A DNA stretch of 64,000 nucleotides from Isoetes taiwanensis. Its lineage: Eukaryota; Streptophyta; Lycopodiopsida; Isoetales; Isoetaceae. The stretch is from positions 1,066,508-1,130,507 of the forward strand of contig JAJEKV010000008.1 of the NCBI GenBank assembly GCA_021234155.1, written 5' to 3'. Within the stretch, counting starts at the first letter, position 1. Each line of letters begins with the position of its first letter. Below are positions 11,404 to 59,205 of this stretch, piece after piece. The notes beneath the pieces were generated by a model. The model was not told where the DNA came from and ran no database searches. It saw only the letters and a program-made list of their open reading frames with translations. The position numbers and the translations under genes were made by a program.

Positions 11404-11408
11404 ATGAG
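11404..11408. repeat. Target site duplication, left (atgag)
   Basis: The five bases immediately before the 5' LTR equal the five immediately after the 3' LTR, marking a single integration event. Confidence 0.85.
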
Positions 11409-13017
11409 TGTGGACGGTCCAGGGAATATACACATAAATACGTATATTCCTCGGATCCAATCACCATACAAGTCTATCTTCATAGCCTTGTATACCATAG
11501 ATTGTGGCACTAGGGGCATGGCCAAGTTATTCTCATAACTTAGCCAACCATAGGTTAGAACCATTATCCACGCGGCCTTAACCTATTGGGCACCCGCCAC
11601 ACAGACTCACCCAATTGGTGCCACGTGGCATCCTAGGTGGACCTAACTTATTTAGGCCTAAACCCTAACCCTAGGCCTCTTTTCCAGCCCTAACACCCAG
11701 ACTCACCTACTGCTCAAAACCCCGCTTCAACATCGCTTGTTGGCATAGATCGGTGCAAAGAAAGCCCCGAGGGAGGTAGACTCGCTCTTGAGCAAGACCA
11801 GCATCGCGAGAGCTCCGGAGACCATGGAGGCACACCTGATCTGGAGGGAGAGCTTCAGAGCGTGTATGTAGGATAGTAGTTGTGATAGCTCATCCGAATT
11901 AGCATTCCAGCTGTGCTAGTATCTTGTATCTAGAGTAGAGCCATCCTAGAACCCGTGATTTAACATCTTGAACCCTAATCAACTAACCCTAACCATTAGT
12001 TAGATTGTATGATTAGGTTAAGATGTTCTTCTTATGATTATTCTCATGATATGATGATTATGTGATGATGGTTGATCATGTTTGCTCCTCTTGTATTGGG
12101 AAGGGGGTAGAGACCTAGGGCCATATGTAGTATGTTCCTAGAGTAGATCCCTTAGTTCCCCATTAGTTGCGGCCGTGCATTAGGAGCCCACCGGGCTATC
12201 GAGGCTATGACATGACTCCAAAGACCATACAACGGGGCCAGAGGGAATGTGGGAGGGAGATCCCCCGCCGAAAGTGGGGGCTTCGGGGATCCCATAGTGA
12301 GCTAGGCTTATGGTCGGTCACTTGTGTGGGCCGGCATGGGTCCCACCTTCCGGGCAATGGTGTCGCCTGAGTCGCAAGTGTTGGCTTGGCTCTCGCTTTG
12401 GGGGTTAAGTCGGGTACGAATCGTGGTGTCGCCACGATTCTCTAGCCACCCACGGAACCTCTAGACCACGAAAGGGAGATGCAACCCTTCCCGCCTCATC
12501 CACTGTGGAGATGCAACCCGAGTAGTCCCCCATGGGTGACGCCATGGGATTGCGTATCCTAAGGCTAGAGTCATGCCAGAGCCCGATTTAGCCCATCTGC
12601 AAAGTATGCACAGGGAGGGGCGGATGGAGTGGTCAACCCCAGCCATTGTTCTATGCCAGCCCCTTTCGCCATTGCCATGACTCGGTCTGCTTCTATCCTC
12701 GAGGCCTAGCCCTGGTCAGCCATCCTCCCCCGAAGTCCGGAAATGGGTAGGGAGCTCTCATGTTTTACGGTTTGTGGTTATCATCTTTGTATTGGTATAT
12801 GGGTGATGCACTACCCTTCGAGGTAGTATTTGTATATGTTTGATGCTAGTTCTCATGTTATCGCCTCACGTTATAGGAGCCCATAGGGGAAGGGCGCAAG
12901 ACACCTTCTCAGATATTCCCTCCCGCACTAGGGATCACCTCGGGTAGACGGCGGCCGGACGGGGGATTTCCGCCCGAGTGTACTGGCCAAGCCCCGATGT
13001 TTAGCAGGAGCGCCACA
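11409..13017 (+). repeat. 5' LTR of the gypsy element
   Basis: 1609 bases aligned end to end with 22838-24473. Long stretches are identical, for example around 11462-11570 and 11985-12110. It contains a telomere-like aaaccctaaccctagg string near 11660 and ends CGCCACA. Differences from the other LTR are mostly small indels in CG-rich patches. Confidence 0.93.
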
Positions 13018-13596
13018 ATGGTATCGTAGCAATGTTCTTGGTTGACCAAGAACTAGCACCACCATAACCATGAAAGTAGTCTAACAAGCCTATAGGAGGT
13101 GTGAAATAAACATTTCCACCGGATGAACCAAAAAAATAGGGGAAAAATTTTTCTCCTAGGTAGTGGGGTCGACTTAGGTTAAGTGATGTATCTAAGGAAT
13201 AAGTAAGTCAAATTCATCTTCTAGTAAATTTGGGGTGAAAATTATGCATCTGCATCAAATTTCACCTAAAATGGGTCAAGAATCATACCAATCTGGACCC
13301 GAGTGAAAAAAAATGGTGCAAATCCATAATTAGCACTTCAAACCATTAGAAAATTCGAAAAATTTTAGGTATAATACGAATTAATACAGGATTAATACAT
13401 ATCTTAATAATTAAATAATTACTAAATATGGTGTAATTAATAAGGGGGGGCTAATAGATAGGGGTAATTATGGTGGGAGAATATTCCTAGGGACCCTCCT
13501 TTTTAAATATTTGACACCTCATTCTCTCTCTCCAACCTTCCACCTCCACCTCTCTCTTGCTCAGCCTTACGTCACCCATTTCCTGAACCGCAAGAC
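13018..13596 (+). other. 5' leader of the gypsy element
   Basis: Primer site followed by AT-rich untranslated sequence up to the first ORF. I see no other signal except a pyrimidine-rich run (about 13510-13570) just before the start codon. Confidence 0.45.
13019..13030 (+). promoter_or_regulatory. Primer binding site, initiator tRNA-Met type
   Basis: tggtatcgtagc begins one base after the 5' LTR. It matches the usual plant primer site TGGTATCAGAGC except for two positions, at CG/CA. Confidence 0.75.
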
Positions 13597-13989
13597 ATGG
13601 CTCGCACCAAGCAAACCTACAGGAAGACTGGCCCTAGGCCCACCCTCTCCATGGCGCAGGCAGCAGGGCGGCACGTCAAGAAGGTCCCCGAGCACCTTCG
13701 GCCGAGGCCAGGCGACGAGGAGTCCCCCGCCAGCAAAGAGCAGAAGCCAAGGCCTCCTTCCATGATACACCGAAAGCCCCCAGCAGCTAGCCCTGCCGGT
13801 GTACTCAGAGAACCGGGCGAAGTTCATTTCTGGCCCCTGAACCAAGCGGGAAGAAGAGGTGGAAGAACAACAACAAATGTAGGGGAAGCTGGTCCTTCAA
13901 GACTAAAGAAGAAGGGCAAGGAGAAAGTCGCTGAAAGTGGCTCTGAGGAGAGGGCCGCCAGGGAAGAAGAGGGAGCCGAGCTGAGTTGA
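13597..13989 (+). CDS. Histone H3-tail-like ORF at the 5' end of the gypsy element
   Basis: A 130-codon ORF starting MARTKQTYRKTGPRPTLS. The first six residues after Met equal those of histone H3 (ARTKQT), and the next are YRK-TG against ARKSTG in H3, so the positions of K4, R8 and K9 are kept. Further on, HVKKVPEHLRPRPG resembles the H3 segment GVKKPHRFRPG. At DNA level the first 21 bases read like an H3 gene, and the shorter stretch after AGGAAG looks like loss of one Ser codon. The remainder is basic then acidic and low-complexity (KKKGKEKVAESGSEERAARE), unlike H3, with no histone fold. I infer capture of an H3 N-terminal segment, although convergence is possible. It is the first ORF after the leader, upstream of gag. 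Its function is unknown. Confidence 0.72.
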   Translation: MARTKQTYRKTGPRPTLSMAQAAGRHVKKVPEHLRPRPGDEESPASKEQKPRPPSMIHRKPPAASPAGVLREPGEVHFWPLNQAGRRGGRTTTNVGEAGPSRLKKKGKEKVAESGSEERAAREEEGAELS

Positions 13990-14520
13990 GGCAGCAGGAA
14001 AGGAGAACTAAGAGGAAGAACGATAGGGCCTCACCGGACCGGGCCATAGAGGAGCCCCCTGAGGAAGAGGAGGCACAGGAGGGCTGGTAGTGGAGAAGAG
14101 GAGGAGGAGCAAAGATCAGACCCCGACAGCCACCCTACCCTAAGTGGGCCGAACCACCAAAAAGTGGTGAAGAAGCAGTAGGGAGGCATTCAAGGCCCGG
14201 ACAGATCGCGAATCTGCCAAAAATGGCGTATACAAGGAGTACTCCCTCCGCTGGGACGAGGTACAACGATTGGTATTGCCGCCGGAGGTGCACGGTTGTG
14301 GAGGGCGGCAGTCAAGAAGAACCAGCCCAAGCCACCCCCACCTAGACCGAAAACCCAAGAGGGTTCACCACGGGCCGAAAAAGACGCGACGCCCGTGTTT
14401 AGGGAGATTAAGCACTTCCGTGATGTGCACAAATCTCCTGATAAGGAAGGCTCTTCGAGCCGCCTCCTTAGGGAAGTAATGCGGGAGTTTCCGACCCGAT
14501 TATAGGGTTACCCCTCTAAT
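13990..14520 (+). CDS. Continuation of the first element ORF, frames broken
   Basis: Coding-like sequence in shifting frames: ERRTKRKNDRASPDRAIEEP, then TDRESAKNGVYKEYSLRWDE, then KKNQPKPPPPRPKTQEG and EIKHFRDVHKSPDKEGSSSR up to about 14505. It is charged and proline-rich, without a domain I recognise. It probably continues the H3-tail protein through single-base indels, giving roughly 300 residues in total. This is inference from reading-frame overlap and composition. Confidence 0.4.
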
Positions 14521-15890
14521 GACCCGGCCCCCAAGAGGTCAGCCGGGCGTAGCTGGTGCAGCTCTTCGAGGAAGGAACCTCTCAGGTAATCCATGCTACC
14601 GTTAGTCACCCTCATCCAAGGACATTCACTTAGCAATGAGGATCTCAGCAGGGAGAGGCCCTAGGCCTCAAATTTTGTAAATTTTGTTAGAAAAGTTAAA
14701 ATTGCATGTAATCAAGTTTTTCTTATTAATATAAAAGTTATTTTCCCTCGTAATTAGAAAAGTGTTGGATGCTTGAAATTTAGGAAATAGAACCCAATTG
14801 TGGTAGAACTCTTCATAGCATGCTTAGGAATACCCTAGAAATCATAACTACAACGGTAAATTTGGCAAAAATCATCAAAAAGCAAAAATTAGGCAACCGG
14901 GGTGAGACCGCCAATGGCCTCTGCAAGGTGACGCTGGATGCTTCCAGCGCGGATTTACCCTCGGACGCCCCTAAAACATGCTTTTAGATGTCGGGCTTTG
15001 CTCAAAATAAGTTGCTAGTTAGCTTAGAATCGCCCAATTAGCCATGTTAGCATCTTGAAATTCCCAAAATCACCAAAAATGGCTCCAAAATAGGCCAACC
15101 GGGTGAGACTGGCGCCAAACGCTGTCTCAAGGTCCGACGCTGAGGCCATCCGCATATGATTCACCCGGGTCAGCCCATTTTTGACCCAAATTAGCCAAAT
15201 TTGATCCAACAAATTGCCATGTAATGTTTCTTGCTTTGTTTTGCTTAAGTTTGCACTTCATGGTAGTTCATTTGGACACCTGCAGCCATAGAACCAAGGC
15301 CGCCTTAGGTAGGTACCTTTTTGCACTAACCCCCGAGGTCACCCATAGTCTATAAAAATAGGTCTCATTTGCCATTTTTCCTTCTACAGAATCAAGCCCC
15401 AGCCCTTTAGGCTTATTTTCTCTCAAACCCCACCATCCTTGCAAGCCATTTTCGCACCCCCTTTCCTACTCAATGGCTTCAAAGAACTTTGAGAGGTGGT
15501 ACAATGTCGCAAGCCATATCCATCAGTTTCCTCAGATCAAGCCTTCTCTGTTCACACCACTTGTTTGATCTCAGATGCAACTCACTAGAACACCCTACTA
15601 CACGCATATTATGTGCCAATATGACCAGCAAGTCCCCGCCTTGGGAAGTTAGGATCCCCTCAGGGGAGGGAATTGGGTTTCTCTTGAGTCACTCACCCAA
15701 GCCTTAAGTCGAGAGTTGGGAGGATCCAAGGGCAAGAAGCAACTATGGGATAGGACTAGGACCATGCCCGACATATGACCTGCGACATAATAGGCATAGG
15801 TACCTTTCGGCCCGCATGCAGCCCTGCCCTTTTCATGCACTATAAGTCAATCAACAAAGTAGGGGAACCTTCGTTCAGCCCTTAGACTTA
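14521..15890 (+). other. Non-coding stretch inside the gypsy element with two diverged repeats
   Basis: No coding signal. Segments near 14866-14965 and 15065-15165 resemble each other (aaatcaccaaaaa..., then caaccggggtgagac / caaccgggtgagac, then a CG-rich part), suggesting an old tandem duplication of about 200 bases. A leader-like stretch precedes the next coding block. Confidence 0.4.
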
Positions 15891-15895
15891 GCCAC

Positions 15896-16866
15896 TTGAT
15901 ACCTCGTAGGGCCCGTGATCAAATCCTCAATATAGAGTCCTCCTCCTATGAATACCATGGCACGACGCCGTGGGCACCATCTCTCGCAGATCTACTGGTA
16001 CTACGAAAGCAAATTAGGGGAGCAAAACCCGCAATGGGAGAACAGGGAGGCAACAAGGATGCAGAGGTACATGTCGAGGCACGACGACGACATCGAAGAG
16101 CTACCGAGCCTCCCGCCGCGGCATCACAAATTGGCCGATAGTCATCGACGGGGAGGAGTACATTTTGCAAACAACATCCTCAACTTGTCGTGATTGCCGT
16201 GAATGTGGTCTTCGAATCGACGAACTCTTAGGCATGATAGCACATGGCAAGAGCGCAGACTTCATCGACTACTCATACCAGGAGATTCCAAGGGAGCTAG
16301 CGGAGAGACACTCTTATGCTGGGGAGACAATGTCGGACATAGCAGCCTATCGCCAGATAAGGGAGATCTATCGACAAAGATGAACCTATCATCTCGTGAG
16401 GAGGAGTTCCAAAGCAGATACAGAGCACACTCTACAAGCCGTGGAGGGGCCCAAGCTCAAGCCGACCCGGGCCGAGCCAGAGTATGAGGGAAGGGTCCAA
16501 AGAAGATCAACTTGGACAACGCAACCAAAGATGTGGAGAGATCATGAAGATCTTATGGCAGTGGATGCCTACGGCAAAGCAGCTCAAAGGAAGGGCACTG
16601 GATCGCGAGGTATAGGGAAGGGCACGGCACTTCGCTACTATCTTCCAGCCCTCAGCCAAGGGCAAATGATAGTTTTCCACAAGGAGTTCAGCCCAAGGGG
16701 AAGAATCCGTGGCACTTCTCATAGCGCCTTCGGGCTTGAGATTCAAGATATACCCCATGCCGACCACATTATCCTTTTCAACAGGGCCGTCAAGGCCCAT
16801 TGCCTCGACTTTTTTGCGAGAGGGCACCTTAGGGATGCAACACTTTCAGTGGGTAGCAAAGAATAA
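15896..16866 (+). CDS. Unassigned coding region between the first ORF and gag
   Basis: Open in overlapping frames: MARRRGHHLSQIYWYYESKL, then CGLRIDELLGMIAHGKS and DFIDYSYQEIPRELAERHSY, then RRSSKADTEHTLQAVEG and FGLEIQDIPHADHIILFN. Composition looks like protein, with long overlapping ORFs broken by small indels, but I recognise no domain. It lies where Ty3/gypsy elements usually have only leader or gag, so it is an extra element-encoded protein or an N-terminal extension of gag. Confidence 0.45.
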
Positions 16867-17426
16867 AGACCAGAACTTCCGTTTAACCTGAGATGGCCCG
16901 AAAGCACTTGAAGGAAGATCGACAAGGAACATCTTATAAAACCCCAAGCAAAGGCCTCCGATTCGTGGATGTCAAGAACTTCTTCGTGCTTTCGAGGCCA
17001 TTGAATAGTTGTAAAATTTTCTTAAGTTGTGTGCTAAATGTTTTCTTATACCCATTGTGCTAAGACATATCTACCCTATCATGTAATCCTTATGTATTAA
17101 TGGCTATTAACCTGCTTTTAAAATGCAAAGTTTTGTATGATTTCTTTATAACTAATAAAGATAATTCAATTACAAGTAAGATTGATCAACATCTAACCCA
17201 AATAACATGCATTGATGATCAATCCTTGCAGCAAGGAACTCAAGTGCAGGATCTCAAGACCAGCACCGACAACGCAATTGGGTACCAAGGAATTTGTTTG
17301 GCAGAGAACAAGAAGACTTCGAGCAGGATATGTCACCAGAGGCAGTCAACGCAAGGTTGGTGCAGATGAGGAACCAGATGCAACACCTCATCAACTGGGC
17401 GACACCCCTGATGAACGCACATAAAG
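16867..17426 (+). other. Linker before gag
   Basis: An AT-rich stretch around 16990-17210 without a clear frame, followed near 17330 by the beginning of a gag-like reading (MRNQMQHLINWATPLMN). Confidence 0.35.
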
Positions 17427-18475
17427 ATGGTCCTCCACCTCCACCTTGTGTTCCCGAGAGGTGACCAAGGCCCCAGCAGAAGGGGAGGGCAAACTGTGGG
17501 GAACGCCGTGGATAGGAGAAGGAAGAGAAGAACCAGAGCCCATCATCATCTAGCTCCAGCCATCGACATTGTTCTTCCAGTGGGGACAGCTTCTAGTCTC
17601 GACAACAACCACACATCTAGAGTAAGGAAAAGGGCAAGAAAGACTGATGACTATCGAGAAAAGGTGGATAGTGCTATGAGCAACGATGGGAAGACAAGGA
17701 AGTCGGGCCAGTTCTCGGGAAAGACAGATCGCATGGAGGCTGAAGCATGGCTTGATGAAATGGAAGAATTTGGTAACTCCTACTGATGAAAGACAAGGAC
17801 ATAGGGAAAGTTGCTACAAATAACCTTATTGGACCGGCAAGGATCCGTGGAAGGGATATGCTAAGTCTAACAAGCTGAAGAGGAACAATTGCGTTTTAAG
17901 ACCTTCAAAGAAGGCTTTCTCCCGCAGCAACTATGTGCCAAGGTCTCATACTAGTAGATCCGATCCAGCTTTTACAAAGTGAATCGGTAGCTTATCGCTG
18001 GCTAAGTATACCGAAGAATTCATGAGGCTTAGGCCCATGTTCCCCGAGTCTCGTAAAGGCAAGCAAAGGATACCTACATTGAGGGGTTGAACAACAATAT
18101 CAAGAGGCTTGTGAGAGAGCAATCAACCCAAGGTCAGTTGCAGGGCAAGATAAAGCTATAAGTTTGGAGGAGGCACCAAAGAACTCCAAAGCAGAGAAGC
18201 AAATAACCTTCGGGGGTAAGAGTTCGATTAAAATATCGGGGTAAGCAATCAGCGCCACACCATCGAGGCCAAAGCAGAAGGTAAGAGTCGAACAAAGCTT
18301 TTGGGGACCGTGAAGCCACGTAATGCATCGGGGCAGTGCTTTAAGCGCCTCCTAGATAGTCTGCGGGCCAAGGAGAAGAGACAAGAATGCATTGAGAAAA
18401 AGTTATGCTTCAGTGCTTCCAGCCGTGGCACCGAACACATGATTGTCCATTCGGCCATGCAAGCCTTGGCCAGTG
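17427..18475 (+). CDS. gag: gag, broken: capsid region and zinc knuckle
   Basis: Structural protein that packages element RNA. The sequence shows FSGKTDRMEAEAWLDEMEEF (about 17710-17770), the typical start of the retrotransposon gag domain, then LAKYTEEFMRLRPMFPES (about 18000-18050) matching the family's L.QYT.EF..L....P. A CCHC zinc knuckle, C.QCFQPWHRTHDC, lies near 18400-18440, with one base missing between its first two cysteines. Frames shift several times and stops interrupt the region, so no intact Gag is encoded as read. Confidence 0.75.
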
Positions 18476-18599
18476 TAACTTATGGATTGGGATTCCCAAC
18501 AGAAGTTTTATCAAGACGACGACCAAAGCAGAGGCCCGTGACTTCATAGATGGTGAGTGCCACATATGTGCAAACATTGAGTCGTGATATTGAGAGTCA

Positions 18600-18990
18600 C
18601 CGATCATCATCATAGGGCCGATGGGATCATAGATAGTAATCCATATGTAGTCCTCATAGATACAGTAGCTCTCACAATTTTGCATCTCCTAGGCTTGGTC
18701 TGCCTTAATGAAGAACAAGGTATTGAAGTCTAAGCCAAGGCCAAAGAGTTATGGCAAACCACGCCATTCTACACACAAAGGGCGTGAGAATCATCTTTGA
18801 CATAGACCTTAGTGGGGCTAAGGGCCGATGGGAGCGAAGTCATGGATATCGAAATACGATCTTATAGTGGGATGGAATTTTGAAGCCAGCCCAAAGCCAT
18901 GATTGATTGGGCGACCGAACGAAAGTCACCATGACGGCACCGCATCGGCAAAGAAATTGATAGTGAAAGGTAAGAAGCTAGATTCTCCCA
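18600..18990 (+). CDS. Aspartic protease region, broken
   Basis: Reads DSNPYVVLIDTVALTILHL near 18632-18690, aligned with the retroviral-type protease motif (V.IDTGA....); the catalytic triplet reads DTV instead of DTG. Further on, about 18890-18925, KAMIDWATERK-like residues match the segment after the flap. It cleaves the polyprotein in intact elements. Here the altered triplet and frame breaks make activity unlikely unless they are sequence errors. Confidence 0.6.
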
Positions 18991-19089
18991 TGCAAAGGTA
19001 TCTCTTTGAAGCAGCCTAAGGAAGAGTATAGAAAGGAATAAGGTGGACTACATCTTGAGGATGGAATTAGTTGAGCCGGGCAAGGTGAT

Positions 19090-19980
19090 GGAAGTGACCC
19101 AAAGGGAAATCAATTGCCCGTGCAAATAGCAAGGCTTATTTCCTCATTCAAGGATGTATTCCCTGATGAAATCCGCAGCCGCCACCTTATAGGGTGTGGA
19201 ATGTGAGATCACGCTGGCTCCGTGATGGCCTACCAAGAAGGCGCATATAGAATGAGCACCCCGTAATTGATTGAGCTCAAGAAGCGCCTTCCGGAATTGC
19301 TTGAGCTTGGCTTTATAAGAGCAAGTGTGTCTCCTTTCGAGCACCTATACTCTTTTGTGAAGAAGAAAGATGGGAGCTTAAGAATGTGCATAGACTATCG
19401 CCACCAATAAGCGCATTTATAAAGAACAAATATGCATTGCCAAGGGCGATGACCTAATGGACCAGCCACAAGGAGCAAAGGTATTCTAAAATTGATTTGA
19501 GGTCGATACCATCGATAAGAATAAAAGAAGAGGATATCCATAAGACCGCTTTCAGAACGCTGCAGATGGTCATTTTGAGTTTACAAGAATGGCCTTTGAC
19601 TATCGAACGCCCAAAGAACGCTTATGCGCCTCATGAACGACATCTTCGTGAGACTTCTTGGATGAGTTTGTTATTGTCTTCTTCGATGACATTCTAATCT
19701 ACAAAGAAGTCCCTCAAGGAGCATTGTCAACATCTCGTGAAAGTGTTGGAGAAGTTGAGACGCCATCTTGCATGGGAAGCTCTCCAAATGCCACTTTGCA
19801 ACAGTCCGAAAGTGGAATATTTGGGGCATGTTGTAACATCCGAGGGAATTTCCACAGATCCATCTAAGATAGAGGCAATAGTTGATTGGCCACCCAAGGA
19901 ATGTGGCGTAAGTGAGAAGCTTTCAAGCGGATATTACGTAAAGTTCGTGGAAGGACTTTGCTAAGGGGCGCCCCTTTGCC
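19090..19980 (+). CDS. pol: Reverse transcriptase, broken
   Basis: Clear Ty3/gypsy RT blocks in order: [18 protein letters not shown] (about 19285-19340), [16 protein letters not shown] (19354-19402), [15 protein letters not shown] (about 19517-19560), then the catalytic core [14 protein letters not shown] (about 19660-19700) with both aspartates present, and [20 protein letters not shown] (about 19810-19870). Frame changes separate the blocks. It copies element RNA into DNA. This is the best-conserved part of the element and identifies it as Ty3/gypsy. Confidence 0.88.
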
Positions 19981-20049
19981 TGACCTCACCAAGGCCAAGA
20001 AGATTAAGGATTGACTAGTCATTGGTTAGAAAGTCCAAGCTTCCTTCGA

Positions 20050-20470
20050 GAAGCTTAAGGAGGCCTTAACAACAAAAAGACAGTGCTTGTTCTCCTGATC
20101 CGAGTAAAGATAAATTGGTGGCAACAGATGCAAGTAAGATAGCAAATGCAGAGCAGCCTTGATGCAAGAAGGAAGGGTAGTCACCACGACCGAAGAAGAT
20201 GAACGACGCCGAAAGCAACGCTACCCAACCCATGATCGAGCTGCTAGCCATTGTCGTGGCATTAAGGATATGGAGGCATTATTTGTCGGGAGGAAGTTTC
20301 AGCTTGGATATCGATCACCGAGTCCGCAGATCTTTTACCCAGCCACCCTCAATTTAAGGCAAAGGAGGTGGATGGAATGTCTTGAGGAGTATGATTTTGA
20401 TATTGTATATAAGCCCGGCAAGCTTAATGTTGTAGCAGATGCCCTCTCCAGGAGACCATTTCAGACAAGA
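20050..20470 (+). CDS. RNase H region
   Basis: Follows RT as expected: a TDASK motif (about 20115-20130), ELLAIVVALRIWRHYL in a shifted frame, then LNLRQRRWMECLEEYDFDI and YKPGKLNVVADALSRRP (about 20350-20460), the conserved end of the Ty3/gypsy RNase H. The region 20159-20767 is open for 202 codons and runs on into integrase. Confidence 0.8.
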
Positions 20471-21560
20471 ACGCATTGTAATGCGATTTCCACTCTTTCG
20501 AGTGAGTTTGGCAAGAAGATTGGGGAGTCCTTGCCAACCGATGTGGACTTCAAGGAGGTGTGGGAAAGCCTCTCCAAGGAAGCCAGAACAGATAAAGAGC
20601 GGGAAGCCTTCAAGCATTATAAGAAGGAAGGCAACCTGTTGTATCACAAGCATAAGTTGTGTGTGCCCGAATCATCAGGAATAAGGAAGCTAATTCTTCA
20701 TGACACACATAACAGCCCAATAGCAGGGCATGCTGGCTTCATGAAGACCTATTTCAAGATTCGGTAGTTACTTCGCCAGGAATGAAGAGGCGATAACCCA
20801 GCATATATTCGATTGCCGCTATGTCGCAGACCAAAGCGAGCAAAACTCGGATTCCGTGTGCTTTAGAGCCATTGGGGTGCCAAATGCGGCGGGAGGTCAT
20901 AAGCATGGATTTCATTACAGGTTCCCTAGAACTCTTCGAGGCAAGGATGCATTGATGGTTGTCGTGACAAGTTATCTAAGATGGCACATTTTGTGCCTTG
21001 CAAGACCACCGACACCGCATTAGATAATCGCCAAGTTATTTGTAAGAGAGATTTTTAGACTCCATGGCATGCCTCGGAGATAATATCCGATAGAGATTCT
21101 AAGTTTATGAGTGCCTTTTAAGCAGATCTCTTTAGCACCATTCAGATCTAAGCTCTCCATGAGCACGGCATATCATCCCCAAAACAGATGGCCGACGGAG
21201 GACGAATCTGGATCATTGAAGACATGCTTCAAGCTATGTGTGGAATAAAGCAATCCAAGCGGGATGAGTACATCCACTTGGTGGAATTCGCCACAATAGT
21301 GCTGCCAAGCAAGAGTCATCTCGATGTCTCCGCTTATGGTAAATTACGTACCAAAGGCTTAACCCCTGACACCGCACAACTCGTCGAAGGTGGAAGTATC
21401 CCAGCAGATGTTAGGGGATATGCAAAGCAGCTTAGTGGAAGAAGTAAGGGGTTACTTATTGGCAAGCAAGAAGCCTGCGTAGAGTGTAGCCGACAAGCAC
21501 AGGACCGTAAGAGAGTTCAAGGTAGGCGAGATAGCTTTGGTTGAAGATCAAGGTGAAGCA
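20471..21560 (+). CDS. Integrase (zinc-binding and catalytic core), broken
   Basis: Begins in the open frame that follows RNase H: LHDTHNSPIAGHAGFMKTYF near 20695-20755 gives the two His of the HHCC zinc finger; the Cys pair is degraded (DCRYVADQ). The catalytic core shows SMDFITGS (first Asp, about 20902-20925) and SDRDSKFMSA (second Asp, about 21086-21115). Near 21185 TDGRR stands where TDGQTER carries the catalytic Glu, so that residue is lost as read. IEDMLQAMCGIKQSKRDEYI and LTPDTAQLVEG follow. It inserts the DNA copy into chromosomes. Confidence 0.8.
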
Positions 21561-21950
21561 AGCCAAGCTTCGGATTGGGAGTTGTAAGAAGCTTGCCCCT
21601 AGGTGGGCTGGTCCGCTCAAGATTTTGGAGAGAGGGCTCAAGCCTACAAGTTGGATCTTCCTACCATCTCAAAGTTCACAAGGTCTTCCACGTAAGTTTA
21701 TTAAAAAGGCACAATCCTAACCCCGAGGAGGTTTTGGATACTCCAACCTTGTTGGAAATGACTGAGGAGCAAGTAGAAATAGTACCCTAATTACTTCTGA
21801 TAAGTCATTCAAGAAGACTAGGAGGTCTCAGCCTCCCAATATTTGGTTAAGTGGAAGCACTTGCCCGTGGAAGATGCATACGGGTATTGAAGCAAGATTT
21901 GGAGAAGCAATACCCGTGAGTTTATGAAGGAGTTTGATGGGCGAAGTCGC
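21561..21950 (+). CDS. Integrase C-terminus with chromodomain-like end
   Basis: Reads KVHKVFHVSLLKRHNPNPEE (about 21670-21730), the GPY/F-like end of integrase, then EEVLDTPTLLEMTEEQVEIV. After one frame change come SFKKTRRSQPP and QYLVKWKHLPVEDA (about 21800-21870), then KQDLEKQYP-like residues. YLVKWK-LP is the core of the chromodomains that mark chromoviruses and guide integration toward chromatin with modified H3 tails. The domain is recognised from short motifs only, so confidence is moderate. Confidence 0.65.
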
Positions 21951-22823
21951 CTCCGACTTGGTCGACCTCGACTTTGCCGTGGTTAGCTAGTATGTTGTTA
22001 GTTAGTTTTAAGCCCCGGGCGATGCATTCTAGTTAATAGGGTGCATGTGCCGTAACCTTGATCGTGGTGGGCGGCGATGGGATACGCTTTTAGGCATTCT
22101 CTAGGCCACACGCATTAAGAGGTGCACATGACCATTAGGGTCATGTGAGTGAGGAATGAGGCATGGTGGGCGATGATGGGACATCGACGGATGATCTCTA
22201 TGCCACGATGCGGGTACGCACACCCGGCCGTAGGAGGGTCATGGTGAAGGTTAAAGTGATCATGCGGCGATGGGATCGTGGAGACGCCCCAGCTTCAAAA
22301 CCCGTGGGGCATGATGCACTAGGGGTACTTTTCACCGTAACCGAAAGTACAAGGTAGCACTGATCATGGGCGGCGATGGGAGCATCTTAATGATCCTTAA
22401 GCTCAAACCGAAAGGGCCATGATCTTGGGCAAGGTAGTAGGACAACCTTGAGTCAAAGAGTTCTACTCAAGGAGGTAAGGGGGGTGGTCCCCTAAACCAC
22501 AAATTATTAACTAAACTAACGTAATGTGCTCCTTTTGCGTGCAAGTAGAAGGTGGACTTCAACTAGGAGCGATTACAAGAAGATAGGGGAGCCATAATTT
22601 AGATTATGAACCCTAATAACTCTTACAATAATGTTTTGAATTATCGTAAGAAATAACCGCGGTTAAGGCTATATAATTTTGTATAAGTACAAATATAGCC
22701 TAAATTTTGACTTGAACTAATAAAACTTGATTACTATAATAAACTAAAGGTTATGACATGTTGTTGCTTGTGCAGTGCATAAGGTAGGTTCGTCACCTTA
22801 GCGCAATGCCGGGACAAAGATTG
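21951..22823 (+). repeat. 3' untranslated region with ~100-bp tandem repeats
   Basis: The motif gggcggcgatggga or close variants recurs near 22068, 22168, 22264 and 22368, about every 100 bases. Flanking words recur too (gatgca.t.tag...ggt.c, ccgtaacc). This is a diverged four-copy tandem array. The rest, to the polypurine tract, is AT-rich and non-coding. Confidence 0.6.
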
Positions 22824-22837
22824 TCCTATGGGGAGAA
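22824..22837 (+). promoter_or_regulatory. Polypurine tract
   Basis: A purine-rich stretch containing ggggagaa directly abuts the 3' LTR. It would prime plus-strand DNA synthesis. Confidence 0.65.
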
Positions 22838-24473
22838 TGTGACGGCCCAGGAATATACGCCCGTCACGATATTCCCCGATCCGGCACCATACAAGTCTAT
22901 CTTCATAGCCTTGTATACCATAGATTGTGGCACTAGGGGGCATGGCCAAGTTATTCTCATAACTTAGCCAACCATAGGTTAGACCATTATCCACGGCCTT
23001 AACCTATTGGGCACCCGCCACACGTGACTCACCCAATTGGTGCCACGTGGCATCCTAGGTGGACCTAACTTATTTAGGCCTAAACCCTAACCCTAGGCCT
23101 CTTTTCCAGCCTCTAACACCCGAGACTCACCTACTGCTCGAAACCCCATTTCAACATCGCTTTTGTCGTGGCATAGACTCAAAGAGCCCCAGGGGTAGAC
23201 TCGCTCTTGGAGCAAGACCAAAGATCGCGAGAGCTCCGAGACCATGGAGGCACACCTGATCCGGAGGGAGAGCTTCGTGAGCAGGTATGTAGGATAGTAG
23301 TTGTGATAGCTCATCCGAATTAGCATTCCACCGTGTGCTAGTATCTTGTATCTAGAGTAGAGCCATCCTAGAACCCCTCAGATTAACATCTTGAACCCTA
23401 ATCAACTAACCCTAACCATTAGTTAGATTGTATGATTAGGTTAAGATGTTCTTCTTATGATTATTCTCATGATATGATGATTATGTGATGATGGTTGATC
23501 ATGTTTGCTCCTCTTGTATTGGGAAGGGGGGTAGAGACCTAGGGCCATATGTAGTATGTTCCTAGAGTAGATCCCTTTAGTTCCTATTAGTTGCGGCTCA
23601 GGCATAGGAGCCCACCAGTGCTATCGAGGCTATGACATGACTCAAAGACCATACAACGGGGCCGAGAGGGAATGTGGAGGGAGGATCCCCGCCGAGTGGG
23701 GGCTTCGGGATCCCATAATGAGCTAGGCTTATGGTCGGGTCACTGCAGGGGTCGGCATGGGTCCGACCTCCCCGGGGCAATGGTGTCGCCCAGCCTCTGA
23801 GCCGCAAGTGTTGGCTTGGCTCTCGCTTTTGGGGTTAAGTCGGGTACGAATCGTGGTGTCGCCCACGATTCTCTAGCCACCCACCTGAACCTCTAGACCA
23901 CGGGAGGGGAGATGCAACCCTTCCCGCCTCATCGGACCCGGGAGATGCAACCCGAGTAGTCCCGATGGGTGACGCCATGGGATTGCGTGATCCCGAAGGC
24001 TAGAGTCATGCCAGAGCCCCGATTTAGCCCATCTGCAAAGTATGCACAGGAGGGGCGGATGGAGTGGTCAACCCTAGCCATTGTTCTATGCCACCCCTCG
24101 CCATTGCCATGACTCGGTTCGCTTCTATCCTGAGGCCTAGCCGGTCAGGTCATCCTCCCTACGAACCCGGAGCCGGGTAGGAGCTCTCATGTTTTACTTG
24201 CTTGTGTTTATCATCTTTGTATTGGTATATGGGTGATGCACTACCCTTCGAGGTAGTATTTGTATATGTTTGATGCTAGTTCTTACGACGTGTTATCGCC
24301 TACTGCTATAGGAGCCCATAGGGGAAGGGCGCGCAAGACACCTTTCAGATTCCCTCCCCGCACTAGGGATCACCTCGGAAAGCGGGGTAGACGAAGGGCC
24401 CGTAGGCCGATGTTGAGCCTGGACGGGGATTTCTGCCGAGTGTACGGGCGCCGATGTTTAGCGTGGAGCCACA
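22838..24473 (+). repeat. 3' LTR of the gypsy element
   Basis: 1636 bases, starting TGTGACGGCCCAGG directly after the polypurine tract and ending AGCCACA, homologous over its whole length to the 5' LTR. Confidence 0.93.
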
Positions 24474-24478
24474 ATGAG
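24474..24478. repeat. Target site duplication, right (atgag)
   Basis: The five bases directly after the 3' LTR terminal CA repeat the left flank. Confidence 0.85.
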
Positions 24479-31639: not shown

Positions 31640-32578
31640 TTCTATGTATGATGATGTTCTATTCTATGCACACTCACATTATATTGGGAAGGGGGGTAGA
31701 GACCAAAAACCTCAAGAATGATGTATCTAGATAGCCTCATTAATTCCCAATTAATGAGGCACGTGCATAAGAGTCCACTGGCTATGAGTGGCGGGACTAG
31801 ACCCGACAGATAAGGGGGACTTGTCCCATTGCAAATTGATCCATGTAAAGCTACCGGGGATCTTAGCGGACTAGGCCTGATGGTTTGCCCTTTGCGTGTA
31901 AGCAAGGCATGGGCTCCGACACCTCTGGTGACGTGTCACCTTCCATGGGGTTCAAGTCAGATGGGTATTGGCCCTCTAGCCGTCATTGTGATGGGCATGC
32001 ATGCCTTTGGAGGGAGTGATTTCCTCCCGCTTCGGAGGGATCGGGAAGATGCAACCCGGGAGTAGTCCCCTTGGCTATGCATCCCGGGCAAACGCCGAAG
32101 TCTCAAGACTTATCAGCCCATTCTGCAAAAAGTATGCACTGGAGGGGCGGATGGAGCGGACTACCCAACGGCCATGTTCTTATGCCAGCCCAATCCATTT
32201 GCCATGAATTCTATCTGCATTGACTTCTGGAGATCCAAGCGGTCGGTCGATCCCCATGAGCACGAGACTTGGATAGGATTCCCCTTATGTTGATGTTACC
32301 GATGTTGTTGTTACAGATGTTATGTTATGGTGAGCCACACTTCGAGCTGGATATATATGCTATTTGATGCTATGTGCTCATGTTTGATGTGCTTCCATAG
32401 TTAGGTAGGTCCCGAGGGAGACGGGATGAATGGCATGTCCATTCTTCCCCATTGGCTTCTTGGATCGTTAGCAACGATCGATGTTAGTTGACGGCCTCAT
32501 ATCGAAGAAGGCGTTGATTGTGAGGGATGAACTCCGTTCTGTCTAAATGGGAGCATCGTTAATGGAAGGGGCGCCACA
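31640..32578 (+). mobile_element. Single LTR related to the gypsy element
   Basis: Near 31678 tattgggaaggggggtagag matches 12092 and 23517 in the two LTRs. The order of features is the same as there: gcataagagtcca / gcataggagccca, gggatgcaacccgg-like string, a stretch with tgcactggaggggcggatgg, tttgatgcta, and the end gggcgccaca. No internal coding region is attached, so it is a solo or truncated LTR of a diverged sister family. Its left end is uncertain. Confidence 0.6.
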
Positions 32579-51715: not shown

Positions 51716-54700
51716 CAGCCGATATGGATCTCATCTTTCTCATGGAGACATGGGAGCATCTTCAAGTACGTGCTACCCGACTGCCCGGGTTACCAACATT
51801 TCTGGTCTTCAATACCACTGTGTGATGAGGGTCATGGTGGAGTGGCTTGCTACTACCGGACAACCTTGGCACATTCGTTACCCTCCGAGGAAGACGACAG
51901 TGCACAACCGGTACTTGTGGGTTCGTGTGCATAATACCAATGGCAACCCTCTTTTTTAAAGCTGTTATTTCCCTCACGTAGAGAGCACCTTCTATCGCAG
52001 CCACCCGGATGCGGATAGGATGGACCCTTATGTCGATCTATATGATGACATACGGCCCGTACCCAGCCGTTGGGTAGGGTCAGCCCTTCTTGGAGACTTC
52101 AATGCACGGGACAGGAGTAGAGCAGCCCATGCGACTTGACCCCCGCCGACGATGTCCTCCGCATCGCCCGAAAAACCTGGCCACGGGATCGGATGACAGC
52201 CCGAGTCACTCGCGCTTTGGCGGACGTTATACGCTATGTGGTATTTTTGACTTGATAATTTGCAATGGCACATCCGCGGTCTGATTCTCGCAAGTGCACA
52301 TGCGCAGGACAATCGGGGAGGGTCTAGTGTGGTGGACTATGTGCTCAGAAGTTGCGCCGAAGATATGCATCTCATCGATCGCTTTAGGGTGGGCACAGAC
52401 AATTCGGGATGATGAGGAGGTCGACTCAGATCACCTCCCACTTTATTTGGACTTGGTTTGGCAAACCGCCCGGGAACCCCCACTATGCCCGGCCCCTCGC
52501 GCTCGGTTGAGACTAGATTATGGCGGTGAGAGGACTACGCCGAGATGCTCATGGGCGCCCCCCGGTAATTACTGGGACCTCCACACTAGAGCGGCGAGCC
52601 GGACCGGTGACTTCGCTATTGCGGGATCACGGCCGACGGTGCTTTTAGCGAACCCCGCGTCGCCGTCGGGATTAGCAACATTCCGCGATAACCGGGATGG
52701 TTTGATGCGAGTGTAAAGAATAGCGGCGGCACCGTCCCACGATGCGGATCCAGTACCCGCTTAGGGGCCACCACAATACCGCCCATCCGAAGGGAGACAA
52801 AGGCCGGTTACCTTCCGAACATCGGGGGAGATGTTCTACCTGCTGGACACTTATCCTCGAACCTTTTGACGCGGAGAGTGTTGAGAAGATAGCCAGCCTA
52901 CAGGGGACATCACACCGAGGGGAACAAGAGACCCGCACGGCTGACTCTATGACCCGCCCGGGGGCAGCGTCACGCCCATACCCCCCACAGGGATGGCCCC
53001 CATTGGTTCCTGGGAGGAGGATGTTGAGGAGGGCCCCAAGAATCCACCGGGCTAATGGAAGGTACCGACCTCTGATAATTATGCAAAGGCCGAAGTTACT
53101 CAAATGGGCAAGGGGCGGCTTTGTAGAATCCCCTCACTACCCCGTTCAACGAGGCATTGCGGAAGGTCTCCCTCCGACAATGGACCTGGCGGTTGTTCCC
53201 ATTCCTAAGGTGGGCGATTTCACACCGTCCGGGCCCAATTACCGAGACCCGATCATGGTCGATTCGATTATTTGCCAAACCGCTATCGCATTCTCGAAGC
53301 AAAGAAGTTGACCGGCTAGGCGAAGGTAAAGTCGCGAGGAGCGAGCCCTCACACGTAGGCGCTTTTGGCCCCGCCACTCAGCGATTGACCATATCTTTTA
53401 CAACTGCGGGCCGATTGAAGACGGCCCGGAATCATCGGCGGGACTTGTATTGTTGCTTTGTGGACCAGCGAAGGCTTTTTGATCTGATTTCGGGGAAAAG
53501 TCAGGCTGGGATCTGCGTCAACCCCGGGGCTCGGGCTTTTGTCGCGAGAATGCCATATACGAGTTGTATGAGAGTTGTTTTAGCGGGGATGCACGGCCGC
53601 GGGCGGGCATTCACCAATAGTATCGAGTCCCGCAGGGTTGCCCCTCTACGCCAATGCTTTTGGCCTCTACATTATTCGATTCAGAGCCCGGCTTCGCGAG
53701 CATGGGGGATGGCATACGACTTTTGCACCACGGTCATCGCCCGGATCATCTATGCGGGCGATGTTGGCTGTTGGCCCCACCCCAGAAGCTATCTGCGGTC
53801 TCACAGATGCCCTAGACACATTTTGTCGGGCCCTGCATGCTGCGTGAATCGGCCAAGACGGGGTGGTTCTCATATCCTCTTCCGCCACCCCATGCCTCCC
53901 GCACTCACATATCGGGGATGGCCAGGAAGTCACGCCCACCTACAAGTACCTAGGGGTGGAGTTCCCCTCCTGCAGCTCTGGCGGGAGGCATCTATCCACT
54001 TATGCGTGTGGCCAGGCCGGAAAGCTTTATGCCATCTGAGAACAACGATCACCGTGCCGAGCTCATGATTAAGGCCATCCGGTCACATCTGTTCCGCACG
54101 TCGAGCCCATCGGCCCTTCAGACGAAGGTCGAGGTTTGGGGCCCTCGTCTCTTTTGGCGACATGGAATGACTTGGAGCAGGTCAGAGAAGGCATTTTTGC
54201 TGCGGAGCACTTGGGGTGAAACCTTGATCCCCTATCGGTCTGTCTGCGCGAAACCGGATTCTTGCCCTTCGGTAGCCCCTTGATGTACACATCGTCTATT
54301 TTCGGAAAGTGGTTACTATGGGTGATGCTGGGCTCCCTTTAGGGCTTACATGCGGCAATGAGTCCCTTGCGTTTAGCCCGTGGAGGGGTAAAGCCCGGAT
54401 GGAACGTCGCAGAACCTGAGATCGTGCAATTGACACCACGTGACCCGATCGTGGCGCCACCATGGAGTACCTAGATGCTTGTTTCCTCGCAAGCTCTCGG
54501 GACCCGGCAGCTTTAAAGTGAGGCCAAACGCGGCCCATTATAAGGGCACATCAACCCGTGTTAGCCCGGCCCACAAATTTACCTGCGTTCCCTACCCATG
54601 GGCTTGAACTCATTGCCTCCGATCGGCACGGTGCCCACCATCTTCGCATTGAGGCAGGGCAGTGGATTGGGAGCCCCGCCAGATGTGCCTGTCGGCCGCC

Positions 54701-55150
54701 AAAGCGGGTGCCATTGAGGATGAGTCTCACACTTTCGAGGAGTTGCCCGGCCGTTGGTCGGTCCGGGCGGATACACTTCTTTAGTGCGGCGGACTTGCCC
54801 TTACCCATTTCCGATGAACACACCGCCAATACGTGCCCTCGGGTCGTACATTCGGAGGTATCTTGACCTCGAGGGTCACCTTTGCCCCCCGCTTTGCTGC
54901 TTTCGGTGATTAGGCACTACGGGTGGGGCATGATCAGATATATTTGGGTGTTTTACGCATTTTATATATTAGGGCGGTTTGTCGGCAGCGTGATTGTCGC
55001 CACGGTTTTTCCCTCAAACCCTTCGGGCGGGGTTTTTAATCCGGGCAGTAATCCGCTTGTTTGCTTTTATCAATGGGTCCCATAGACCGATTGGTCTCCG
55101 TGGACGATAAAAGTACCTTCCTTCCTTCCTTCCTTCCTTCCTTCCTTCCC
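51716..55150 (+). mobile_element. LINE nested in the L1, microsatellite 3' tail
   Basis: It starts within the endonuclease: FLMETWEHLQVRATRLPGL, then WVRVHNTNGNPLF (about 51900-51957), ALLGDFNARD (about 52088-52112), VVDYVLRSCAEDMHLIDRF and DDEEVDSDHLPLYLDLVWQT (about 52410-52466). RT follows, then a C-terminal EDESHTFEELPG motif (about 54718-54752). The 3' UTR shares a 30-bp block with 38918-38946 and ends in (cttc)n from 55116. A possible target repeat is cagc.gatat (51716-51725 and 55179-55188), with one mismatch. 5' truncated. Confidence 0.75.
52740..54068 (+). CDS. LINE reverse transcriptase, broken
   Basis: LPPTMDLAVVPIPKVGDFTP and FTPSGPNYRDPIMVDSIICQ (53180-53275), RRDLYCCFVDQRRLFDLISG (about 53437-53500), then GVPQGCP-like residues near 53630 and ARIIYAGDVG (about 53740-53770) where active enzymes have YADD. 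53157-54068 is open for 303 codons, although some motifs fall in other frames, so frames alternate. It is the same family as the fragment at 32580-34170. Confidence 0.68.
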
Positions 55151-55715
55151 TTGTGAACCCGTAAGAGACAATCCATTTCAGCAGATATTGAGCAACAAAT
55201 GGCCATTCTTCAGGAGGAGTTAGTTAGTATGAATTCAACTCAAATTAACTCTCAGGTTCATGATGTGGGAAAGGTTGACTGCTATTCAGGCTGTCCTTCA
55301 GAGAATGCAATGGTTTTAGATACTCCAGATCGAAAAAACTCCAAATTGTTCATGAAACTCCTCCAAGTCTCAGTCCCGAGATCTGCATCAACTCTCACAA
55401 TTCTCCTATGGATGATCAAATAATTCAACTAATAAATGCTTGTTTGATAACTCAGTAAACAAAATGTTTGAGTTTATTCCAGGGGGTGCTTCTGATAGTG
55501 AGGTTGAGTTAGATCTAGATTCTGATAAGGAAAATATAGGGAAAAATGTATGGGGAGATGATGAACTCTTGAGAGATTCTTTCTTAAAGACTAAGCCTCA
55601 TCCCAAAGCTTTATTAAAAATGGTGGATGCTAACACCCCAGCCAATAATACTAGGAGCAAAAAAACGAAACAGAGCTATAAAAAGGCTGGTAAAAATTTA
55701 GGGAGATCTAAATAA
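55151..55715 (+). CDS. L1 ORF1 end (resumed after nested LINE)
   Basis: Reads EEELVSMNS-like, then FEFIPGGASDSEVELDLDSD and NTRSKKTKQSYKKAGKNLGR, an acidic then basic tail, ending at a stop just before ORF2. Typical of plant L1 ORF1 ends but without a domain. Confidence 0.45.
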
Positions 55716-55748
55716 GTTTCCTCTTTCTAATTCTTCTCTTGTCTAAAA

Positions 55749-56629
55749 ATGAAGATAGTTAGTTGGAATTTGAGAGGTATCAAAGGTTCCCTAAAGAGAA
55801 AGAGAGCAATTTCCCAAGTAAGACAGTATGATGCAGATATTGTCTTGCTCCAGGAACTCAAGCTTCCTAAATTTGAAGCTTCCAACTGGGAGACTGGATT
55901 TATCCAGGCTCTTCATCAATCTCGATTGAAGCAAATGGTACTAGAGGAGGGATGGCCATTATATGGAAAAACCTGCAGCATATCTCTTTCTGCAATAGTT
56001 CTTCTAAAATGTGGCAGGCTGTCACCTTCTCTGTGAACAATACTTCATTTGGAGTCATAAATGTGTATGCTTCCACTTGTCCAAAAGAGAGAGAGAAACT
56101 TTGGCCTAGTATTAATTCTTGGATCATAAACAACTCCACTGTTGACTGGATTCTAGCAGGAGATTTTAATAATACCCCTACTTGGGATATGAAGTTGGGA
56201 AATAAAATCAACATGTCCATGGCTGAGAGGGTAAGTTGGGATAAACTTATTGCTGACTCTTCTCTCATATACATTCCTTCTTCTACCTCTATTTATACAT
56301 GGTCCAATAAACAAAAAACACTTGATAGAGTTTACTGTGCTCTAGATAGATTTTATGTCTCTAATCCAAATTCTGATTTTTGGGACAACTGCTATGTCAC
56401 AAGTGATGAAGGTACATCCATCTCGGACCACCAGCCTCAATTTCTTTGTACTAAGCATCTGCTTAATCCTCTCAGAGAGAGAAATATTCCCTTCAAATTT
56501 AATTGTTCTCTTCTTCAAAGCACTTCTTTTCAAAAGGAGTTCTCTGATTTCTACTTGTCCTTTAATTCCATGCTTCCTAATTTATCCATGAAGAATTTCT
56601 ATCTCAAAATAAAAAAGGCTAAAGATTAG
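55749..56629 (+). CDS. L1 ORF2, endonuclease domain, one frame change
   Basis: Starts MKIVSWNLRGIKGSLKRKRA, the standard plant L1 ORF2 start (M.I..WN.RG......R), with IVLLQELKL (catalytic Glu). After a shift near 55940: FGVINVYASTCPKEREKLW, WILAGDFNNTP (GDFN, about 56150-56180), YTWSNKQKTLDRVYCALDRF and TSISDHQPQFL (SDH, about 56414-56446). All key endonuclease motifs are present. Confidence 0.82.
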
Positions 56630-58620: not shown

Positions 58621-59205
58621 GCATTCTCTCCCAAATGCTGCTTTTGTGGATATTCATCCTCAATCCCAATACTTCTCCTTTGATGAGAAATCTGAAATGG
58701 CCCCGAATAAAATTCATCCCGGTTGCACCCCTAGACAATTTTCTTCAAGCCACTATGAGCACTAATCTATTTTGGTCACCAATTTTCTCTCGATCAATTT
58801 TCCAACATTATGGCCATTAAGCATCCTAAGATTTATAGTAAATGGTCTAGTAAGGGTATCAATTTCGCCATTAAAGATCTTAGAGCAACAATACTTTCAT
58901 AAATTTGACCTTTGAAGATTCTTTAGGGGGTACCTCCAGTCACAAGAAGCTTTTGTGCACTTCAAGAATATTTTGGCTTCCTTTAATAATTTTTGACTTC
59001 AATAATGGTTGCTCCATAAAAGGAAAGAATATTTTCTAACAAAGAAATTTATTCCTTGATTAATGTGGCATTTCGAATCAAGGCCATCTGCGAAATGGTC
59101 CTTAGATCAATCCCAAGTTAAACCTCTTTTAAAATGTTTGAACTCTTAATGCACCCCTAAAATTTGCTTCTTTATTGAAGCCATTGCAATGTCATAAAAG
59201 AAAAT

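What the first reader, a model, noticed from the sequence alone, without database searches (positions are those of the whole stretch)
13597..13989. Retrotransposon ORF that begins with the histone H3 tail
The first ORF of the Ty3/gypsy element starts MARTKQTYRKTG, keeping the H3 residues ARTKQT and the K4, R8 and K9 positions, and later has HVKKVPEHLRPRPG, resembling H3 GVKKPHRFRPG. The first 21 coding bases read like an H3 gene. Chance matching of six consecutive residues directly after the start codon is very unlikely, and the second segment in the right order argues for capture of H3 sequence. Such a protein could compete for readers, writers or erasers of H3K4/K9 marks that silence the element. 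I know of no description of this in plant chromoviruses.
Basis: partly seen in the sequence, partly recalled or inferred. Interest (0 to 1): 0.9.

Follow-up and report, generated by a model that had tools for sequence, protein, structure and literature searches.

The report
Retrotransposon carrying its own histone H3
A jumping gene in this plant genome carries a complete, selectively conserved variant of histone H3, a core protein of chromosome packaging, which suggests the jumping gene alters chromosome packaging for its own benefit.

Summary
The H3-like start is real, and it is part of something larger. The window holds a complete Ty3/gypsy chromovirus (11409-24473, TSD ATGAG). Its first gene (13597-14664) starts ARTKQTYRK and ends in a whole histone H3 fold (14380-14664). 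Indels hide the fold in this copy; they look like long-read errors near CpG. The genome (1.658 Gb; by assembly size probably the quillwort Isoetes taiwanensis) holds 275 sites encoding MARTKQTYRK and 447 encoding this family's fold motif. Of 39 other copies fetched, 8 have an intact 360-369 aa ORF; all 8 match Pfam Histone (E 6e-28 to 8e-30). Codons 2-7 encode ARTKQT in 40 of 40 copies, with synonymous changes; dN/dS is 0.10 overall, 0.07 in the fold. A second family (674 sites) carries a closer H3 fold behind a different N-terminus; its one copy traced through pol is a related chromovirus with the same gene order. Fungal hAT transposons with captured H3 and viral single H3s are the nearest precedents; my searches showed no report of an LTR retrotransposon encoding a core histone. 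Function is inferred: a nucleosome-forming H3 variant that alters chromatin for the element.

The parts
11404..11408 (.). target site duplication ATGAG (left)
   Evidence: identical to 24474-24478
11409..13017 (+). 5' LTR, TG...CA
   Evidence: 83 indel openings and 57 substitutions against the 3' LTR, clustered near CpG
13019..13033 (+). primer binding site, initiator-Met-tRNA-like (TGGTATC...)
   Evidence: sequence; the sister-family copy has TGGTATCAGAGC; that this matches tRNA-Met is recalled
13490..13530 (+). conserved TATA-like block (TTTTTAAATA ... TGACACCTCATT) about 95 nt before the H3 gene; possible internal promoter
   Evidence: near-invariant in 8 of 8 other copies aligned; promoter function inferred
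13597..14664 (+). element-encoded histone H3 variant gene; ATG 13597, TAG 14662-14664; frame broken by indels in this copy
13597..13626 (+). H3 tail start MARTKQTYRK (positions R2, K4, R8, K9 of H3 kept)
   Evidence: codons 2-7 encode ARTKQT in 40 of 40 copies with synonymous changes at 5 of 6 codons
13627..14379 (+). rest of the tail and a long charged linker (about 230 aa in intact copies)
   Evidence: linker dN/dS 0.11
14380..14664 (+). histone H3 fold (helices N, 1, 2, 3) ending RERP-stop
   Evidence: Pfam Histone in intact copies
15350..15359 (+). TATA-like box before ORF2
   Evidence: conserved in 9 of 9 aligned copies including the window, one with a 1-nt deletion; promoter function inferred
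15473..16990 (+). ORF2, protein of unknown function; broken here, intact (454 aa) in another copy; end approximate
   Evidence: homologous to ORF2 of the sister family, E 2e-7
17330..18500 (+). gag (broken); bounds approximate
   Evidence: Retrotrans_gag 3.9e-14 in the same ORF of another copy
19267..20460 (+). reverse transcriptase and RNase H (broken); bounds approximate
   Evidence: RT_RNaseH 1e-8, RT_RNaseH_2 6.2e-6 among pieces of 17202-22492; RT itself read by eye only
20684..21790 (+). integrase (H2C2 zinc finger to SH3-like end; broken); bounds approximate
   Evidence: Integrase_H2C2 4.5e-4, SH3_Tf2-1 1.6e-4
21825..21884 (+). chromodomain piece
   Evidence: Pfam Chromo E 0.0016, below Pfam's gathering score
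22830..22837 (+). polypurine tract
   Evidence: sequence
22838..24473 (+). 3' LTR
24474..24478 (.). target site duplication ATGAG (right)

Best explanation
A clade of Ty3/gypsy chromoviruses in this genome has captured a host histone H3 gene and kept it as an accessory gene between the 5' LTR and gag. In the window's family the product is about 365 aa: H3 tail start ARTKQTYRK, a long charged linker, then a complete H3 fold. SHOWN: the gene's identity, its fixed place in the element in the copies examined, its copy number, its intact copies and purifying selection on it. INFERRED (about 0.8): it pairs with host H4 and enters nucleosomes, because the histone fold is its most constrained large part in both families and the DNA-contact and H3-H3 interface residues are kept. 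INFERRED (about 0.4): these variant nucleosomes help the element escape or blunt silencing, with the unusual tail and linker changing how chromatin enzymes treat chromatin that carries it. The TATA-like boxes suggest the gene may be made from its own internal promoter (inference).
For: Fold found in the broken copy by frameshift-aware alignment, H3-specific: H3.1 114, rice CENH3 96, Arabidopsis CENH3 79, H2B 36, H2A 30, H4 25. Confirmed in intact copies: 8 of 8 ORFs match Pfam Histone at 6e-28 to 8e-30 and the one searched matches PDB H3 chains at 1.6e-31. Copies: 275 MARTKQTYRK sites, 447 fold sites, reversed-pattern controls 0. dN/dS 0.10 overall, fold 0.07, residues 2-10 0.02; sister family 0.11 overall, fold 0.03. 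H3 gene, then ORF2, then gag pieces in 8 of 8 extended copies and in one of two sister-family copies examined downstream, that one with RT, integrase end and chromodomain. In the window's alignment R49, R63, K64, R69, R72, R83, H113, V117, T118 and D123 are kept; NLCAIHAKRVTLMPKD is invariant in the 8 intact copies. Roles of these residues are recalled.
Against: No expression, protein or chromatin data were available. Both structure models are weak (mean pLDDT 53 and 49), though the helix order fits H3, and Foldseek found no PDB match at E <= 0.001. The region that sets chaperone choice (about H3 84-90, recalled) is changed in the window's family, so deposition may be impaired. The dN/dS values pool non-independent pairs of intact copies only.
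Confidence: 0.72

Rival explanations
1. Tail decoy: the main job is to display K4/K9-type sites and soak up readers, writers or erasers of H3 marks.
For: ARTKQT is encoded in 40 of 40 scored copies with synonymous variation; residues 2-10 are the most constrained part (dN/dS 0.02).
Against: The sister family, with more sites, keeps the fold (dN/dS 0.03) but begins MAITKS or similar; a pure decoy would not need a constrained histone fold and interface.
Confidence: 0.15
2. Targeting or packaging: variant nucleosomes mark sites for the element's integrase-chromodomain, or the H3 packs element cDNA.
For: The same elements carry a chromodomain (Chromo 0.0016 in the window; 3.4e-8 in a sister-family copy).
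Against: By eye the chromodomain (QYLVKWKHLPVEDA) appears to lack two of the three HP1 cage aromatics, so methyl-lysine reading is doubtful (group I/II rule from passages of PMC12786077; cage positions recalled).
Confidence: 0.2
3. Passive cargo: a host H3 swept up by transduplication with no role, as for many fungal hAT copies.
For: Such passive capture is known (PMC6710886, abstract and outline; PMC3538342, passages).
Against: Two families keep it with dS about 0.5-0.8 and dN/dS 0.03-0.13 in fold, linker and N-terminal parts; the place in the element is the same in the copies examined.
Confidence: 0.06
4. Chance resemblance or an isolated H3 pseudogene inserted into one copy.
For: None beyond the broken frame in the window.
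Against: Hundreds of copies, intact ORFs, Pfam E of 6e-28 or better.
Confidence: 0.01

Closest known systems
Histone H3-like (H3L) in hAT DNA transposons of Pyrenophora tritici-repentis and other fungi (PMC3538342, PMC6710886)
   Same: A transposable element that captured a histone H3 gene and amplified it.
   Different: DNA transposons in fungi; in Pseudocercospora fijiensis the hundreds of captured copies were inactivated by RIP (abstract). Here it is an LTR retrotransposon clade of a plant, with a long linker and low dN/dS.
Single viral histones: bracovirus H4, xenomavirus H3 (PMC9145170, passages)
   Same: A single core histone with an extended N-terminal tail, thought to join host nucleosomes.
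   Different: DNA viruses or polydnaviriforms; the review's main text has no occurrence of 'retrotranspos' or 'Metaviridae'.
Ty3/gypsy elements with acquired domains, e.g. the AlkB-type demethylase in Phalaenopsis (PMC9289625, passages and one section)
   Same: An extra ORF of host origin in a plant Ty3/gypsy element, retained through replication.
   Different: A screen of 121 angiosperm genomes reports 15 extra domains; no histone domain is named among them in the section read, and the full chart is in a supplement not read. Other lineage and other domain.
Chromoviruses (chromodomain Ty3/gypsy)
   Same: LTRs, PBS, gag, RT, RNase H, integrase, chromodomain.
   Different: About 4.2 kb of extra sequence with two ORFs before gag.
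Plant CENH3
   Same: H3 fold behind a divergent N-terminal tail; plant CENH3s also start MARTK (recalled).
   Different: No loop-1 insertion and a better match to canonical H3.

Membership tests
Ty3/gypsy chromovirus | paired LTRs TG..CA with 5-bp TSD, PBS, PPT | tested here: met
   window element; LTRs of the sister-family copy were not delimited
Ty3/gypsy chromovirus | gag, then RT-RNase H, then integrase | tested here: met
   RVT_1 4.8e-39 in a sister-family copy; no Pfam RT match in the window's own broken pieces
Ty3/gypsy chromovirus | chromodomain at the integrase end | tested here: met
   Chromo 0.0016 on a 20-aa piece, below Pfam's gathering score; 3.4e-8, above it, in a sister-family copy
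Ty3/gypsy chromovirus | place in a named lineage (Tekay, Reina, CRM, Galadriel, Tcn1 ...) | not tested
   no reference RT set was used
Histone H3 | H3 histone fold with N-terminal helix | tested here: met
Histone H3 | H3 rather than H2A, H2B or H4 | tested here: met
   114 against 30, 36 and 25
Histone H3 | H3 tail start ARTKQT with K4 and K9 | tested here: met
   window family; the sister family lacks it
Histone H3 | forms nucleosomes | not testable with these tools
   needs reconstitution
CENH3 | loop-1 insertion relative to H3 (recalled as a plant CENH3 feature) | tested here: not met
   no gap in the alignment with host H3
CENH3 | closer to CENH3 than to H3 | tested here: inconclusive
   canonical H3 scores higher with 4 of 4 frameshift penalties, but the tree puts this family with two recalled CENH3s at 68/72, not significant

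The most novel reading that the evidence does not exclude
A whole clade of retrotransposons builds its own chromatin: an ancestral chromovirus captured a host H3, its descendants diversified it into at least two H3 variants with different N-termini, and over a thousand fold-motif sites (against 15 full-length host H3 hits) supply element-specific nucleosomes that protect or mark the elements.
Probability: 0.4. Interest if true: 0.95.

Novelty: new variant of a known kind. Interest (0 to 1): 0.9.

Why it matters
Plants silence retrotransposons largely through H3K9 methylation and histone variants. A retrotransposon clade that encodes and conserves its own H3 would be a direct counter-move in that conflict, and a natural experiment in how far an H3 can change (long linker, altered tail) and still work. 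It also makes a testable system: predicted variant nucleosomes in a sequenced plant. A practical caution follows too: TE 'decay' calls in this assembly may be unreliable, because in many copies the H3 gene is broken by indels that in the window look like base-calling errors near CpG.

Tried and rejected
Pfam scans of the window's own broken pieces found no histone, nor did PDB sequence searches of two of them, because frames are broken. Protein search of the 130-aa ORF against 5.8 billion proteins: 97 candidates, none at E <= 1; of a piece of ORF2: 8 candidates, none. The third search, a pol piece, gave 633 proteins at E <= 0.001, best 74% identity over 63% of the query, the best 120 listed: it shows ordinary Ty3/gypsy relatives and says nothing on the H3 gene. 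Viral contigs: nothing confirmed in 3 scans. Rfam: nothing. Period-3 signal was uninformative. ORF2 has no Pfam family and no convincing PDB match, best E 0.13; the N-terminal 280 aa of a sister-family H3 protein had no PDB match at E <= 1. Structure models were too poor for fold search. CENH3 membership rejected (loop 1). Dating by LTR divergence rejected, since sequencing error seems to dominate the LTR differences. Single against double capture: unresolved (p-AU 0.29 for the two families as one clade). The upstream flank of the sister-family copy matched its own integrase region, not an LTR pair, so its LTRs were not delimited. A second sister-family copy (L086) showed ORF2 downstream but no gag-pol match in 6 kb.

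Full report
OBSERVATION. The ORF at 13597-13989 is present as described and begins MARTKQTYRKTG. Among 2,986 ATGs on both strands of the window it is the only one followed by more than three of the six residues ARTKQT.

THE ELEMENT. It lies in a complete LTR element: 5' LTR 11409-13017, 3' LTR 22838-24473, target site duplication ATGAG on both sides, a Met-tRNA-like PBS directly after the 5' LTR and a purine tract before the 3' LTR. Pieces of the internal region match RT_RNaseH (1e-8), RT_RNaseH_2 (6.2e-6), Integrase_H2C2 (4.5e-4), SH3_Tf2-1 (1.6e-4) and Chromo (0.0016): a Ty3/gypsy chromovirus with about 4.2 kb of extra sequence between PBS and gag. No piece of the window's own RT reached a Pfam RT model; that domain was read by eye.

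WHY THE FRAMES ARE BROKEN. The two LTRs differ by 83 indel openings and 57 substitutions; 71% of 118 difference events lie within 4 columns of a CpG against 39% of all columns, and one AT-rich 100-column block has none. That pattern fits base-calling error at methylated cytosines better than decay (inference). The genome has 1,658,258,908 bases in 1,110 contigs; the Isoetes taiwanensis paper gives 1658.30 Mb in 204 scaffolds plus 909 contigs (1,113), sequenced with Nanopore v9.4.1 flow cells and Guppy 3.1 and polished with Illumina reads (PMC8566536, passages). The host name is an inference from that match.

THE HIDDEN FOLD. A frameshift-aware alignment of H3 to the DNA found the H3 fold at 14380-14665: score 108 for the fold against a maximum of 48 in 1000 DNA shuffles and 40 in 1000 protein shuffles; of 750 windows over both strands only the two at this place scored above 45. 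With the full proteins, H3.1 scores 114, rice CENH3 96, Arabidopsis CENH3 79, H2B 36, H2A 30, H4 25. R49, R63, K64, R69, R72, R83, H113, V117, T118 and D123 are kept; R116, C110, D106 and F84 are not in this copy's alignment; their roles are recalled. A GC-rich block (0.47-0.70 per 100 nt) runs from about 13570 to 14640 between AT-rich flanks, fitting one coding unit.

TEST IN OTHER COPIES. The genome search became reachable and scored 40 copies (window included) of 879 first-look candidates. All 40 start MARTKQT; in 38 of 40 a fold score of at least 109 was found in the stretch examined (L026 72, L039 26). For L039 the fold motif lies 316 nt after the start, outside that stretch, which fits an internal deletion. 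Eight of the 39 other copies have an uninterrupted ORF of 360-369 aa; the other 31 break earlier. The eight match Pfam Histone at 6e-28 to 8e-30, 8 of 8; the one searched matches PDB H3 at 1.6e-31. So the fold predicted from one broken copy was confirmed in independent intact copies. The 40 are the copies most similar to the window, not a random sample.

COPY NUMBER. A degenerate 30-mer for MARTKQTYRK matches 275 sites (reversed control 0). A 32-mer for the fold motif VTLMPKDIHLA matches 447 sites (control 0). On contigs C1-C906, where both printed lists are complete, 10 of 26 tail sites have the exact fold motif 995-1051 nt downstream on the same strand, out of 40 fold sites there; the other 16 tail sites do not, through error, divergence or truncation (not examined).

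SELECTION. In the 40 copies codons 2-7 encode ARTKQT without exception, with synonymous variants at five of the six codons; codon 8 is Tyr in 36 of 40, codon 9 Arg in 34, codon 10 Lys in 35. NG86 dN/dS pooled over 28 pairs of 8 intact ORFs: all 0.10, residues 2-10 0.02, residues 2-40 0.095, linker 0.11, fold 0.07. Pairs are not independent and only intact copies were used.

SECOND FAMILY. The H3.1 search gave 15 full-length host H3 hits (96-98% identity) and 135 other scored hits, 150 scored of 9,022 first-look candidates. Of the 15 others examined (L071-L085), all carry an H3 fold closer to host H3 than the window family's; 8 have a long ORF beginning MAITKS or similar, the rest are shorter frames. 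A 32-mer for their motif VTIMPKDLALA matches 674 sites (control 0). Two copies were followed 6 kb downstream. One (C1034) has, in order, the H3 gene (412 aa, Histone 3.2e-41), a second ORF, gag (Ty3_capsid 4.4e-13), RVT_1 (4.8e-39), SH3_Tf2-1 and Chromo (3.4e-8), with a PBS TGGTATCAGAGC upstream. The other (L086) has the second ORF but no gag-pol match in that stretch. Pol DNA of the first is 68% identical to the window's over 1,659 columns; the two families' second ORFs are homologous (21% over 301 aa, E 2e-7). dN/dS over 7 intact ORFs: all 0.11, N-terminal part 0.13, fold 0.03; two of the seven (L082, L083) are nearly identical, and L075 was dropped because its start did not fit the script's pattern. 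The shared layout favours one ancestral capture; the fold tree does not settle it (p-AU 0.29), and puts the second family nearer host H3 only weakly (80/70).

LAYOUT AND EXPRESSION. In 8 of 8 extended copies the H3 gene is followed by ORF2 pieces and then gag pieces; for L051 only one gag motif was seen. TATA-like blocks before the H3 gene (8 of 8 other copies) and before ORF2 (9 of 9) are conserved, which suggests internal promoters; nothing was measured.

MECHANISM. What both families share and conserve is the fold, not the tail, so I take nucleosome entry as the core property (about 0.8) and alteration of silencing chromatin as the likeliest purpose (about 0.4). A K4/K9 decoy is possible for the window's family only. 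Reading of the element's own H3 tail by its chromodomain is doubtful, because the chromodomain appears to lack cage aromatics (by eye; group I/II rule from passages of PMC12786077).

WHAT IS KNOWN. Fungal hAT transposons carry H3 (PMC3538342, passages; PMC6710886, abstract and outline). Viruses encode single H3s with long tails (PMC9145170, passages). A screen of 121 angiosperm genomes lists 15 extra domains in Ty3/gypsy elements; no histone domain is named in the section read (PMC9289625; its supplement was not read). The term histone does not occur in the held main text of the two Isoetes genome papers, the additional-ORF paper (PMC7264820) or the giant-transposon review (PMC6431247). Paper searches listed no report of an LTR retrotransposon encoding a core histone; most listed papers were seen as title and abstract start only, and the library is open-licence papers only.

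LIMITS. No expression data; low-confidence structure models; no comparison outside this genome; chromovirus lineage not assigned.

Noticed in passing
11409-13017 vs 22838-24473: LTR differences are mostly indels near CpG, the signature expected of base-calling error at methylated cytosines; some 'broken' TE genes in this assembly may be intact.
   Followed up: partly
15473-16990; L052:1242-2603:-: ORF2, a 454-aa protein of no known family, conserved beside the H3 gene and homologous between the two element families.
   Followed up: partly
L077, L080, L085 (sister-family H3 ORFs): An internal ARKSG/ARKTG motif before the fold resembles the H3 K9/K27 context although the ARTKQT start is lost.
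   Followed up: no
24026-24112 and 32115-32207: A 94-column piece of the 3' LTR has an 82% match elsewhere in the window, perhaps a remnant of a related element.
   Followed up: no
55877-56629: ORF with weak endonuclease/exonuclease-family matches (Exo_endo_phos 1.5e-4), probably a LINE.
   Followed up: partly
59179-59799: 206-aa ORF with a weak Tudor-knot chromodomain match (0.0024).
   Followed up: no
52001-56000: GC 53% and CpG 6%, above every other 4-kb block of the window, with several long overlapping ORFs; the one scanned from its middle (53127-54065) had no Pfam match.
   Followed up: no
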